A DNA stretch of 64,000 nucleotides from a bacterium (GTDB taxonomy: Bacteria > Bdellovibrionota_C > UBA2361 > RFPC01): contig JAUIBK010000006.1 in assembly GCA_030428205.1 (NCBI GenBank), forward strand, positions 1 through 64,000, given 5' to 3'. The notes beneath the pieces were generated by a model. The model was not told the origin of the DNA. It made no database searches and saw nothing but the letters and a program-made list of their open reading frames with translations. The translations under genes were made by a program, and so were the position numbers. Each line of letters begins with the position of its first letter. Position 1 is the stretch's first letter. Shown in pieces: positions 41,094 through 43,716 of this stretch.

Positions 41094-41558
41094 CTACTTG
41101 GTCCTACGTTCCTGAAAAAACTGTCGAATAAGTGTTCGACATCTCTCTTCCTCGAGGCCACCGGCAACCTCAGCGAGGGGCCCCCAGCTCTGATCTCCGG
41201 TGAGATCGTACTTAGACCCTGCTCCCCCCATCCGTTGGTCAAATGCTCCAAAGACGACTCGCTTGAGGCGAGCAAGGCGAATTGCGCCCATGCACATAGG
41301 ACACGGTTCGAGAGTCACGTACAGCTCACACCCCGTGAGTCTCCAGTTGTTGATACTTTTGCTGGCTTCTTTGATTGCGAGTATCTCAGCGTGTGCACAC
41401 GCATCACCAAGTTCTTCAATTTGATTTCTTGCCTTGGCGATGACTTGGCCATCATGTACGACCACAGCTCCGACAGGAACTTCGCCTGCGGAGTATGCTA
41501 GCTCAGCTTGTTTGTAGGCTAATTCAAAAAAGGCGTGGTCTTCAGGAGAGAAAGTCAT
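41094..41558 (-). CDS. tadA: tRNA-specific adenosine deaminase TadA
   Basis: A 154-residue zinc deaminase that converts A34 of tRNA-Arg(ACG) to inosine. The zinc and proton-transfer motif is 'ACAHAEILAI' (HAE, about 55-64) and the second motif is 'LEPCPMCMGAIRLAR' (PCxxC). Length and motifs are typical. Its substrate, tRNA-Arg(ACG), is encoded 1.7 kb away at 43229. Confidence 0.95.
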   Translation of the reverse strand: MTFSPEDHAFFELAYKQAELAYSAGEVPVGAVVVHDGQVIAKARNQIEELGDACAHAEILAIKEASKSINNWRLTGCELYVTLEPCPMCMGAIRLARLKRVVFGAFDQRMGGAGSKYDLTGDQSWGPLAEVAGGLEEERCRTLIRQFFQERRTK

Positions 41559-41611
41559 GAGAGGGGGGGATAACGTTTGAAGCAGTAATTCTTCGCTTAT
41601 GTGAAAAATTT

Positions 41612-41684
41612 AACCACCGAGTACACCAACGGCACCGAGATGTTTGAGCCTTAGTTCTCGGTGCCCCCGGTGTACTCGGTGGTT
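41612..41684 (-). terminator. ACCGAG-type palindrome, probable terminator of the tRNA-Ser cluster
   Basis: Arms 41612-41640 and 41656-41684 are complementary except for three central positions. They contain CACCGAG and its complement repeatedly. On the minus strand the hairpin is followed by AAATTTTTC, and on the plus strand by TTTTT. It could therefore stop transcripts from both sides. Confidence 0.6.
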
Positions 41685-41720
41685 TTTCTCTTGAGACCTA
41701 GGCTAAGACGGAGACTGAAG

Positions 41721-41796
41721 CACGGGTTCGAACCCCCCGGGACTCATCTTGTTTCAGATAAACCCCCACTCTGTGCTTATACTACATAAAACAACC
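41721..41796 (-). repeat. Partial third tRNA-Ser(GGA) terminal repeat
   Basis: The 58-bp spacer (41739-41796) is essentially the same as that at 42017-42074. It is followed by an inverted T-arm (GGGGGGTTCGAACCC on the minus strand), where the unit breaks off. Confidence 0.7.
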
Positions 41797-41934
41797 TGGC
41801 GGAGAGGAGGGGATTCACCATTTGCGTGCGCAAATGGTATTCGAAGCAGTCTTTTCTCAGGGGGTTCGAATCCCCCTGTAAACAAAGCTTCGCAATGAAA
41901 CCACTTCCAGGCGTATCCGCCAAAAACTACAACC
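41797..41934 (-). repeat. tRNA-Ser(GGA) terminal repeat, copy 2 (138 bp)
   Basis: On the minus strand: 58-bp spacer (41934-41877), inverted T-arm GGGGGATTCGAACCCCC, about 13 bases, then CTTCGAAT. The palindrome ACCATTTGC/GCAAATGGT follows, and then GAATCCCCTCCTCTCCGCCA, the last 20 bases of the tRNA with CCA. Confidence 0.85.
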
Positions 41935-42074
41935 TGGCGGAGAGGAGGGGATTCACCATTTGCAAAATTGCAAATGGAATTCGAAGCAGACTTTCCTCAG
42001 GGGGTTCGAATCCCCCGGGACTCATCTTGTTTCAGATAAACCCCCACTCTGTGCTTATACTACATAAAACAACC
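41935..42074 (-). repeat. tRNA-Ser(GGA) terminal repeat, copy 1 (140 bp)
   Basis: Directly downstream of tRNA-Ser(GGA). It has a 58-bp spacer (42074-42017) and an 82-bp core (42016-41935) with the same plan as copy 2. The palindrome is CCATTTGC/GCAAATGG with a different loop. Confidence 0.85.
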
Positions 42075-42164
42075 TGGCGGAGAGGAGGGGATTCGAACCC
42101 CCGATACGCTTGCACGTATACACGCTTTCCAAGCGTGCGCCTTCAACCGCTCGGCCACCTCTCC
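42075..42164 (-). tRNA. tRNA-Ser(GGA)
   Basis: 90 bases including encoded CCA. The acceptor GGAGAGG pairs with CCTCTCC, the long variable arm of class II tRNA is present, and the T-arm is GGGGGTTCGAATCCCC. The anticodon loop TTGGAAA gives GGA. Followed on its 3' side by two full terminal repeats and one partial. Confidence 0.95.
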
Positions 42165-42209
42165 GAAATCACCAAAATTTTGCATGCAAAATTTTTCGTG
42201 ATTTCGGAG
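42161..42209 (-). repeat. 5'-leader palindrome of tRNA-Ser(GGA)
   Basis: CTCCGAAATCAC (42161-42172) pairs with GTGATTTCGGAG (42198-42209) around an AAAATTTTGC/GCAAAATTTT core. The stem includes the first bases of the mature tRNA. The same structure is present at tRNA-Ser(GCT) but not at tRNA-Ser(TGA). Confidence 0.75.
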
Positions 42210-42278
42210 ACCACGCCGTAGCCTGAAAGGCGAAGGCGGGTACTCAAACTAAAAAAAACCTACAAGGATCATGAATAA

Positions 42279-42384
42279 ATGCAAATGGATTCGAAGCAGT
42301 GTTGTTTTCAGGAGGGTTGAATCTCCCTGTACAAATAGCTTCAGTAGAAACCGCTTCCAGGCGTATCCGCCAAAAGCTATAACC
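42279..42384 (-). repeat. Degenerate tRNA-Ser(GCT) terminal repeat, copy 3
   Basis: The 57-bp spacer (42328-42384) is followed by a mutated inverted T-arm (GGGAGATTCAACCCTCC on the minus strand) and CTTCGAATCCATTTGC. The unit then breaks off inside the palindrome. Confidence 0.7.
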
Positions 42385-42521
42385 TGGCGGAGAGGAGGGG
42401 ATTCACCATTTGCTTACGCAAATGGTATTCGAAGCAGTGTTGTTTTAGGGGGTTCGAATCCCCCTGTACAAATAGCTTCAGTAGAAACCACTTCCTATAA
42501 GCTTCGCCAAACGTAAAAACC
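42385..42521 (-). repeat. tRNA-Ser(GCT) terminal repeat, copy 2 (137 bp)
   Basis: 57-bp spacer (42465-42521) plus 80-bp core (42385-42464): inverted T-arm, CTTCGAAT, palindrome ACCATTTGC/GCAAATGGT with a TAAG-type loop, and the tRNA 3' end with CCA. Confidence 0.85.
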
Positions 42522-42660
42522 TGGCGGAGAGGAGGGGATTCACCATTTGCGTGCGCAAATGGTATTCGAAGCAGTCTTTCCTCAGGGGGGTTCGAATCCC
42601 CCTGTAAACAAAGCTTCGCAATGAAACCGCTTCCAGGCGTATCCGCCAAAAGCTATAACC
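42522..42660 (-). repeat. tRNA-Ser(GCT) terminal repeat, copy 1 (139 bp)
   Basis: 58-bp spacer (42603-42660) plus 81-bp core (42522-42602) with the standard plan. It directly follows the CCA end of tRNA-Ser(GCT). Confidence 0.85.
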
Positions 42661-42750
42661 TGGCGGAGAGGAGGGGATTCGAACCCCCGGTACGGTAACC
42701 CGTACACTCGCTTAGCAGGCGAGCACCTTCAGCCACTCGGTCACCTCTCC
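42661..42750 (-). tRNA. tRNA-Ser(GCT)
   Basis: 90 bases with encoded CCA. The class II long variable arm is present, the anticodon loop CTGCTAA gives GCT, the acceptor is GGAGAGG/CCTCTCC and the T-arm is GGGGGTTCGAATCCCC. Confidence 0.95.
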
Positions 42751-42795
42751 GAAATCACCAAAATTTTGCACGCAAAATTTTTCGTGATTTCGGAG
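42747..42795 (-). repeat. 5'-leader palindrome of tRNA-Ser(GCT)
   Basis: Nearly identical to the leader palindrome at 42161-42209 (one or two loop changes). It also overlaps the first four bases of the mature tRNA. Confidence 0.75.
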
Positions 42796-42849
42796 ACCAC
42801 GCCCGAGCTCGAATGAGCGGAGGCGGGTAAAGAGAAGTGCTAAAAAAAC

Positions 42850-42989
42850 TGGCGGAGAGAGGGGGAACCCCATTTGCATAAATGCAAATGGAATTCGAAG
42901 CAGTATTTCTCTAGGGGGTTCGAATCCCCCCGGGGAAACAAAGTTAAGAACCTCGCTCCGTCCTGTAACATAATCAAAGTTACAACAGT
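42850..42989 (-). repeat. tRNA-Ser(TGA) terminal repeat (140 bp)
   Basis: 58-bp spacer (42932-42989) with a sequence unlike the other spacers, plus an 82-bp core (42850-42931). The core has an inverted T-arm, CTTCGAAT, palindrome CCATTTGC/GCAAATGG and the 3' end of this tRNA (CTCTCTCCGCCA, as in this gene and not the other two). Confidence 0.85.
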
Positions 42990-43079
42990 TGGCGGAGAGA
43001 GGGGGATTCGAACCCCCGATACCCGTTAAGGTATGCTGGTTTTCAAGACCAGTGCCTTCAACCGCTCGGCCACCTCTCC
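42990..43079 (-). tRNA. tRNA-Ser(TGA)
   Basis: 90 bases with encoded CCA. The anticodon loop CTTGAAA gives TGA, and the class II variable arm is present. Its wobble uridine would be a substrate for the CmoA/CmoB enzymes encoded at 53947-55997. Followed by one terminal repeat. Confidence 0.95.
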
Positions 43080-43228
43080 ACACGTTTTGTATGCCCCAAG
43101 AAAGCTTCGGGCATGGGCCAAGAGATTAGATCAAAAAGGAAAAGTGTTGCAAGATGGGGAGCTTCCATTTTTTTTTCTTGAAAATTTTGCCTTAAACGTC
43201 CAGATTTGCTACCAATTCACCCTGGTCA

Positions 43229-43305
43229 GCACCCTTAGCTCAGCTGGATAGAGCGTCTGACTACGAATCAGAAGGTCGGGAGTTCGAATCTCTCAGGGTG
43301 CGCCA
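43229..43305 (+). tRNA. tRNA-Arg(ACG)
   Basis: 77 bases with encoded CCA. The acceptor is GCACCCT/AGGGTGC, the anticodon stem TCTGA/TCAGA has loop CTACGAA (ACG), and the T-arm is GGGAGTTCGAATCTCTC. A34 is the TadA target. Convergent with the tRNA-Ser genes. Confidence 0.96.
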
Positions 43306-43446
43306 CCAGTTTTTTGGTCCTTTTCTGGGCATTTTTCCCCACTAAAAATAGCAAATCTCAAAGTGAGAGATTCGAACTCTACCCCGTAGGGACAAAACAG
43401 CGAATCTTTACATTCACGAAGTGAATGTAATCCTCAGGGTGCGCCA
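43306..43446 (+). repeat. tRNA-Arg(ACG) terminal repeat (141 bp)
   Basis: 59-bp spacer (43306-43364) plus an 82-bp core (43365-43446). The core has inverted T-arm GAGAGATTCGAACTCT, then CGAATC, palindrome TTACATTCAC/GTGAATGTAA, then the last bases of tRNA-Arg with CCA. The first ten bases of the next spacer (CCAGTTTTTT) recur. Same plan and length as the Ser units but different sequence. Confidence 0.85.
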
Positions 43447-43500
43447 CCAGTTTTTTAGTTGTTGTAGCTCCTTGTGCGTTTCTCACAGCTCCTTTTCCTC

Positions 43501-43629
43501 CTCATCATCCTGCACCTTCTCCTGCACCTGTCTCCAAATCCTTCTCAAACGACTGTTGTTTAAGTTTTATTATGATCTCGCGGAGCGAAGGGGAGGAATT
43601 AGGTGCAGGAGAAGGTGCAGGATGATGAG
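43501..43629. repeat. TGCACC-type long inverted repeat, copy 2
   Basis: Perfect 29-bp arms (43501-43529 and 43601-43629) rich in TCCTGCACC, with a 71-bp loop. The rest of 43447-43716 has no gene that I can support. Confidence 0.8.
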
Positions 43630-43716
43630 AAGGAGTACTTGCCTTTTTGCTTTCAAGAGAACTCTTGATAGTATTCCCTTCAAGAATAACAACGACTCTT
43701 CTTTAGGCCTCTCCCT

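What the first reader, a model, noticed from the sequence alone, without database searches (positions are those of the whole stretch)
41721..43446. tRNA-terminal 140-bp repeat arrays behind three tRNA-Ser genes and one tRNA-Arg gene
Each tRNA gene is followed by one to three near-tandem units. A unit is a 57-59 bp spacer, an inverted copy of the T-arm, about 13-20 bases, a partial T-loop (CGAAT), a palindrome, and the last ~20 bases of that same tRNA with CCA. Core length is 80-82 bp and total 137-141 bp in all six full copies. The Ser(TGA) and Arg versions differ from the others in almost all sequence outside the tRNA part. Conserved length and plan with changing sequence implies selection or a copying mechanism rather than one recent duplication. 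The only precedent I can name is the E. coli tyrT 178-bp repeat (rtT RNA), which also carries the tRNA 3' end. Here four unrelated tRNAs share the plan.
Basis: partly seen in the sequence, partly recalled or inferred. Interest (0 to 1): 0.93.

Follow-up and report, generated by a model that had tools for sequence, protein, structure and literature searches.

The report
tRNA-end repeats with built-in guides
Behind four transfer-RNA genes of this uncultured bacterium, and behind others in its relatives, sit short repeats that each carry a backwards and a forwards copy of the gene's own end, a plan also found in a long-puzzling repeat of E. coli; they are likely small mobile pieces of DNA that would find their place by base pairing with the tRNA gene.

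Summary
The window has six full units (137-141 bp) and two partial ones behind Ser-GGA, Ser-GCT, Ser-TGA and Arg-ACG tRNA genes. It is not local: among 163 tRNA genes examined in five genomes of the phylum, 38 are followed by an inverted copy of their own T-arm plus a copy of their own 3' end; re-pairing downstream regions gave 1.06 on average, at most 4. Unit length is not constant outside the window: behind nine other tRNAs of this genome the tail match ends at +101 to +156. The E. coli tyrT/tyrV (rtT) repeats have the same hidden plan; so do lysQ and lysV of K-12, and seven more K-12 Lys/Arg genes have a shorter version. Rfam's RtT model does not match these genomes. Hairpin tips in the units are mostly of types stable in DNA, on the tRNA-sense strand (25 of 38; 2 of 38 on the other strand), though predicted energies show no strand bias. 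My best reading: small non-autonomous elements acting as folded single-stranded DNA, the inverted arm serving as a guide, as in IS200/IS605. The enzyme is unidentified; a processed-RNA role is the main rival.

The parts
42075..42164 (-). tRNA-Ser(GGA), host of array 1
41935..42074 (-). array 1, unit 1 (140 bp)
42000..42016 (-). inverted T-arm of unit 1 (16 of 17 to the tRNA)
41956..41977 (-). palindromic hairpin of unit 1
41935..41954 (-). copy of the tRNA 3' end (20 of 20) closing unit 1
41797..41934 (-). array 1, unit 2 (138 bp); inverted T-arm 41860-41876, tail copy 41797-41816
41721..41796 (-). array 1, partial unit 3 (spacer and inverted T-arm only)
42661..42750 (-). tRNA-Ser(GCT), host of array 2
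42522..42660 (-). array 2, unit 1 (139 bp); inverted T-arm 42586-42602, tail copy 42522-42541
42385..42521 (-). array 2, unit 2 (137 bp); inverted T-arm 42448-42464, tail copy 42385-42404
42277..42384 (-). array 2, partial and degenerate unit 3
42990..43079 (-). tRNA-Ser(TGA), host of array 3
42850..42989 (-). array 3, single unit (140 bp); inverted T-arm 42914-42930, tail copy 42850-42869
43229..43305 (+). tRNA-Arg(ACG), host of array 4
43306..43446 (+). array 4, single unit (141 bp); inverted T-arm 43365-43381, tail copy 43427-43446 (16 of 20)

Best explanation
The arrays are tandem copies of a tRNA-3'-end repeat with the same plan as the E. coli rtT repeat, and each copy is likely a small non-autonomous mobile element that acts as folded single-stranded DNA, its inverted T-arm predicted to be a guide that base-pairs with the copy of the tRNA 3' end. 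Shown: on the tRNA-sense strand each unit reads spacer, inverted T-arm (the would-be guide), linker and hairpins, then the tRNA 3' end that is complementary to the guide; the guide and tail follow the adjacent tRNA, whereas the linker (own-genome form AANACTGC or a near variant, often after a CCC-GCA-GGG hairpin) is shared between units of different tRNAs. Inferred: a Y1 (HUH) transposase of the IS200/IS605 or REP type, supplied in trans, would cut where guide and tail pair, as IS608 does with a 4-nt guide 5' of its hairpin; carrying the tRNA end would keep the tRNA gene whole; units would spread by insertion next to tRNAs and arrays would grow by re-insertion or by recombination between repeats. 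Unexplained by this model: why the spacer behind the tRNA is often duplicated as well.
For: Plan tied to the adjacent tRNA: 38 of 163 tRNA genes, control mean 1.06, max 4 in 50 re-pairings; inverted copies cover the T stem-loop (about 61 of 163, control about 13) and direct copies run from the T-loop to the 3' end (about 48 of 163, control about 2-5). Tips: 25 of 38 unit hairpins with loops of 3-4 nt have DNA-stable tips on the tRNA-sense strand (17 cGNAg triloops, 4 cGNYAg, 2 cGNABg, 2 gCNNGc), none is GNRA or UNCG; 2 of 38 on the other strand; background 4 of 130 readings (tetraloop motifs from the title of Nakano 2002 seen in a reference list and the GAA triloop from passages of PMC5090098). 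Paired strands that left the tRNA sequence together: Met (L018) and Cys (L021) units (by eye). IS608: guide 5' of the hairpin pairs with the cleavage site and can be extended to retarget (PMC5934647 passages); REP GTAG as guide (PMC8266576 passages). Y1 genes in 32 of 37 genomes, own included; two of 23 Y1 loci fetched lie directly behind a tRNA on the same strand. Same plan in E. coli, which also has a Y1 match (control list).
Against: No enzyme is linked: Y1 was not found in G033, whose Ser locus has a unit-like inverted arm; only 3 of 23 Y1 loci have any tRNA in the fetched flanks, and whether Y1 and units go together across genomes was not tested. Predicted folding energy shows no strand preference (DNA parameters: 22 top, 19 bottom, 2 equal; RNA: 19 and 24; of 43). 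Some tips are of the RNA-type GNRA: GAAA in the L074 unit and GCAA in the argZ and argV units of K-12, both outside the counted set. GNA triloops also occur in RNA (recalled). Nine of 43 units have no perfect hairpin of 5 bp. Guides of 8-17 nt are far longer than the known 4. The duplicated stretch often reaches beyond the tRNA end into the spacer, which a simple insertion 3' of CCA does not give. No movement was seen.
Confidence: 0.4

Rival explanations
1. The units are RNA elements: they are transcribed with the tRNA, fold by pairing the inverted arm with the tail, and are cut out as small RNAs ending in CCA, as annotated for RttR in E. coli.
For: All units counted lie on the tRNA strand, though only that strand was scanned; K-12 annotates ncRNA rttR (171 nt) over one E. 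coli repeat; the Rfam RtT consensus structure pairs inverted arm and tail; shorter versions lie inside E. coli tRNA operons between tRNAs.
Against: No GNRA or UNCG tips among the 38 hairpins counted; spacer length and sequence vary; presence differs between relatives for the same tRNA; no RNA data for these genomes.
Confidence: 0.27
2. The units are cassettes of a tyrosine recombinase: the T-arm is its attachment site and the folded core is an attC-like single-stranded site, so arrays behind tRNAs would be integron-like.
For: T-loop and anticodon loop are classical integrase targets (recalled); in the Trp unit an inverted anticodon arm (20 of 25 matches; best of 200 shuffles 18) takes the place of the T-arm; this genome has an integron integrase (431 bits); folded attC sites are strand-specific (PMC2727003 abstract).
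Against: Integron integrase is over cut-off in only 12 of 37 genomes and not in G002, G005, G006, which have units; none of the five PF00589 genes lies on the window's contig and ARAGORN finds no tRNA in their fetched flanks, although a weak Rfam tRNA match (29.1 bits, G000:C79:1385-1456) lies beside one of them; no proximal-to-distal gradient in 21 arrays (5 against 3, 13 equal; one search sorted by eye).
Confidence: 0.15
3. No dedicated enzyme: the units are tandem duplications with snap-back (template-switch) copies at tRNA genes, spread within arrays by gene conversion.
For: Duplication often reaches into the spacer; Ser-GGA and Ser-GCT share a 96% identical unit and one partial unit looks like a mosaic of two types.
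Against: A linker motif shared between different tRNAs and genomes, and tail copies that stop at or near the tRNA end in some cases, are not expected from random template switches; by eye the inverted copy is not preceded by an inverted spacer.
Confidence: 0.15

Closest known systems
RtT repeat of E. coli tyrT/tyrV (Rfam RF00391, ncRNA rttR)
   Same: Behind a tRNA, about 60-nt spacer, inverted T-arm (14 of 17), hairpins (GCA tips in the tyrV repeat), tail copy of the tRNA 3' end with CCA, in tandem.
   Different: Sequence unrelated to the Rfam model (0 of 5 genomes at E up to 1); behind many isotypes; tail matches at +101 to +156 behind the nine other tRNAs of this genome instead of a 178-bp period.
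IS200/IS605 (IS608) ends and REP/REPIN elements
   Same: Hairpins with a guide 5' of them that pairs with a site; tiny non-autonomous copies (passages).
   Different: Guide 8-17 nt copied from the tRNA instead of 4 nt; no GTAG noted at the guide's place (by eye); no Y1 match on the window's contig among the four of this genome.
Integron attC cassettes
   Same: Tandem cassettes ending in a folded single-stranded site.
   Different: No GTTRRRY/RYYYAAC boxes seen by eye, tRNA in place of attI, integrase often absent.

Membership tests
RtT (RF00391) | directly behind a tRNA, with a copy of the tRNA 3' end | tested here: met
RtT (RF00391) | inverted arm complementary to the tail around inner hairpins | tested here: met
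RtT (RF00391) | score of the Rfam covariance model | tested here: not met
   0 of 5 genomes at E up to 1; no RtT hit in the window at gathering score
RtT (RF00391) | processed RNA product | not testable with these tools
   no RNA data
IS200/IS605 or REP-type element | guide 5' of a hairpin complementary to a site 3' of it | tested here: met
   geometry
IS200/IS605 or REP-type element | Y1 transposase in the genome | tested here: met
   4 matches in this genome, 3 of them over cut-off; 32 of 37 genomes; none in G033
IS200/IS605 or REP-type element | strand-specific fold | tested here: inconclusive
   tips favour the tRNA strand, energies do not
IS200/IS605 or REP-type element | cleavage and transfer by the transposase | not testable with these tools
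   needs biochemistry
Integron cassette array | integron integrase present where units are | tested here: not met
   G002, G005, G006 have units but no match over cut-off
Integron cassette array | attC R boxes | tested here: not met
   read by eye in the units; what look like ordinary attC sites are seen in L066

The most novel reading that the evidence does not exclude
A class of guide-programmed single-stranded-DNA elements lives at tRNA 3' ends in at least two distant bacterial groups, the E. coli rtT repeat being one: each element carries an 8-17-nt DNA guide copied from its host tRNA gene, and changing the guide moves the element to another tRNA.
Probability: 0.28. Interest if true: 0.92.

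Novelty: new variant of a known kind. Interest (0 to 1): 0.76.

Why it matters
The E. coli tyrT repeat has stood as an oddity of one tRNA (recalled). Here the same arrangement is found behind 38 of 163 tRNA genes examined in five genomes of an uncultured phylum and, in full or short form, behind Lys and Arg tRNAs of K-12, with an inverted T-arm that was only implicit in the Rfam structure. That turns a curiosity into a class whose parts can be tested in E. coli, and, if the guide reading is right, would show a natural element that uses a long DNA guide to reach a chosen tRNA gene.

Tried and rejected
Constant unit length as a sign of selection: rejected, lengths vary in the same genome. Rfam families for the units: (window; window and nine loci) only tRNA and one RNase P match reached gathering score; the RtT model does not match; the below-threshold microRNA, plastid and sX4 hits overlap tRNAs or an inverted repeat and are taken as noise. 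Integron link: this genome has an integron, but integrase and units do not go together. A collection-wide DNA pattern gave 2 viral and 11 genome stretches; on reading only L074 and L079 are units, the other 9 and both viral ones do not look like units. Orphan cores: one structured core without a tRNA nearby (G000:C8, L083). Polarity of arrays: the printed test (31 pairs: 17 against 3, 11 equal) counts noise-level second hits; among the 21 arrays that I judged by eye to have a real second copy it is 5 against 3 with 13 equal, so no polarity. Fold energies: no strand bias. Spacer repeat: the pattern found one place only. Prior description of tRNA-end repeats: the listings (open-licence papers) show none on this plan; subscription papers on rtT are not held, so this is no proof of absence.

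Census limits: six Thr(GGT) rows were dropped because their T-loop did not fit my pattern; examined were G000 30 (33 matches), and of the matches G002 33 of 34, G005 39 of 43, G011 41 of 44, G006 20 of 35 (not all stretches were fetched). E. coli: 54 tRNAs in 13 stretches chosen from memory, not all K-12 tRNAs; one ARAGORN call was dropped and tRNAs with under 40 nt before the next tRNA were not scored. Background hairpins used stem 6 or more, units stem 5 or more. In one search the printed context of matches near a contig start (L112, L120) is shifted; these were not read from it.

Full report
What is in the window. Three serine tRNA genes and one arginine tRNA gene lie at 42075-43305. Reading each on its own strand, the DNA behind the gene repeats a unit of 137 to 141 bp: six full units and two partial ones. 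A unit reads: about 58 nt of spacer; an inverted copy of that tRNA's T-arm; a linker; a partial copy of the T-loop; a palindrome of 22-23 nt with a short loop; and a copy of the last 20 nt of that tRNA through CCA. The Ser-GGA and Ser-GCT arrays share a 96% identical unit, one partial unit looks like a mosaic of two spacer types, and Ser-TGA and Arg units are distant in sequence.

It is a property of the lineage, not of the locus. In the same genome (33 tRNA matches) the same parts follow Tyr, Met, Arg-TCT, Ala-TGC, Ala-GGC, Asn, Pro-TGG, Leu-CAA and a second Met tRNA under strict criteria, and by eye Cys, with a degenerate one behind Thr-GGT. I then fetched tRNA surroundings from four more genomes and tested 163 tRNA genes: 38 have both an inverted T-arm (14 or more of 17) and a copy of their 3' end (11 or more of 14): G000 13 of 30, G002 11 of 33, G005 3 of 39, G006 4 of 20, G011 7 of 41. 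Pairing each tRNA with the downstream DNA of another gave a mean of 1.06 and at most 4 in 50 rounds. A position-by-position profile shows that the inverted copy covers the T stem-loop and fades into the acceptor stem, while the direct copy starts in the T-loop and runs to the 3' end. The same isotype can have a unit in one genome and none in another. A covariance model of the core finds it in 10 of 37 genomes, own included; the 45 genomes that a phylum-wide search returned are all of one class.

What varies and what is kept. Spacer and unit length vary (tail matches end at +89 to +283). A perfect hairpin of at least 5 bp with a 3-5 nt loop lies between inverted arm and tail in 34 of 43 units (a looser set), with quite different sequences. 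The linker is shared: AANACTGC or near variants in this genome, often after a CCC-GCA-GGG hairpin. In the second Met and the Cys unit the inverted arm and the partial T-loop differ from the tRNA at the same positions and still pair with each other (by eye). In the Trp unit an inverted anticodon arm replaces the inverted T-arm (20 of 25 matches; 18 was the maximum in 200 shuffles).

Which strand, DNA or RNA. Of 38 hairpins with loops of 3-4 nt in those 43 units, 25 have tips of kinds stable in DNA: 17 cGNAg triloops, 4 cGNYAg, 2 cGNABg, 2 gCNNGc. None is GNRA or UNCG. Read on the other strand 2 of 38 qualify; in 84 kb of background 4 of 130 readings do. The four tetraloop motifs are those in the title of Nakano et al. 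2002, which I saw only in a reference list; the stability of the GAA triloop is from passages of the same citing paper, PMC5090098. This speaks for a folded single strand of DNA with the sense of the tRNA. Against it, predicted energies show no strand bias, and GNRA tips do occur outside the counted set: GAAA in L074, GCAA in argZ and argV of K-12.

E. coli. In K-12 the tyrT and tyrV repeats carry an inverted T-arm (14 of 17) at +59 and +62 and tail copies ending at +175 and +178; the tyrV repeat has hairpins with GCA tips. The Rfam RtT consensus structure pairs the inverted arm with the tail. Among 54 K-12 tRNAs in 13 stretches, lysQ and lysV also have the full plan, and lysT, lysW, lysY, lysZ, argQ, argZ and argV have a perfect 14-nt tail copy with a shorter inverted stub and a similar hairpin string, including CCC-GAA-GGG or CCC-GTA-GGG (stubs by eye). 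A 56-nt composite of the Lys core matches 5,264 of 5,426 E. coli genomes, median 7 places; in 50,697 phage records 7 match. Yet the Rfam RtT model finds nothing in five genomes of this lineage, so I file the window arrays as a new variant of the RtT kind, not as members of that family. Whether the likeness is descent or convergence is open.

How it may work. IS608 and its kin move as single strands; a guide just 5' of a hairpin pairs with the cleavage site, and longer pairing has been engineered to retarget it (PMC5934647, passages); REP elements and their Y1 proteins follow similar rules (PMC8266576, passages), and REPINs are tiny non-autonomous elements (PMC3116915, passages). The units have this geometry with a guide copied from the tRNA. 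Y1 genes are found in 32 of 37 genomes, and two of 23 fetched Y1 loci lie directly behind a tRNA on its strand. But I saw no Y1 gene inside a unit, one genome with a unit-like arm lacks a hit, and the duplicated spacer is not explained. I therefore hold this at 0.4, with the RNA reading at 0.27, a tyrosine-recombinase reading at 0.15 and enzyme-free duplication at 0.15.

Limits. The lineage is unnamed: two of its genomes appear to be MAG records titled only 'bacterium'. Only open-licence papers could be searched, and the original rtT papers were not seen.

Noticed in passing
L066:9940-13710 (G000:C22): This genome carries an integron: an integron integrase gene (TIGR02249, 431 bits) followed by genes separated by what look like ordinary attC sites (by eye).
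   Followed up: partly
L260, L262, L264 (E. coli K-12): tRNA-Lys and tRNA-Arg operons of K-12 carry RtT-like cores behind and between their tRNAs; 5,264 of 5,426 E. coli genomes match a composite of the Lys core.
   Followed up: partly
L009 and L008 (second units), L011, L014: An insert of about 80 bp (like GAATCAAGGCTCGCC ... GGGCTCGACCC) sits inside the inverted T-loop behind Ala-TGC and Arg-TCT, and similar pieces lie behind Gly-GCC and Pro-TGG (by eye): a second small element that may target the inverted T-loop.
   Followed up: no
L010, L024, L003, L044, L217 just behind the tRNA: Many spacers begin with a shared stretch like TTTTCCGCTCGSCGCTCNGGCCCAGGGG ... TTCACCC, in several genomes and isotypes, also where no unit follows (by eye).
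   Followed up: partly
L101 (G000:C53) and L239 (G036:C80): A Y1 transposase gene lies directly behind tRNA-Arg(CCT) and, in G036, another (RAYT-like, recalled) with inverted ends GGTGACAGTT.../...AACTGTCACC directly behind tRNA-Ala(GGC).
   Followed up: partly
L054 and L050 behind Ser tRNAs: A different tandem repeat (about 74 bp, copies ending in CATCCGGT, like the tRNA end) follows serine tRNAs in G021 and G026.
   Followed up: no
window 42160-42210 and 42746-42796: Palindromes just 5' of two serine tRNA genes include an inverted copy of the tRNA 5' end (TCTCCGAAATCAC ... GTGATTTCGGAGA).
   Followed up: no
window 41094-41721; L074: The Ser-GGA array ends next to a gene that looks like tadA (recognised by eye, no family search), and an orphan Ser unit lies next to a similar gene in L074.
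   Followed up: partly
window 43496-43634: A 34-nt inverted repeat (97% complementary) with a 71-nt gap between tRNA-Arg and the next gene.
   Followed up: no
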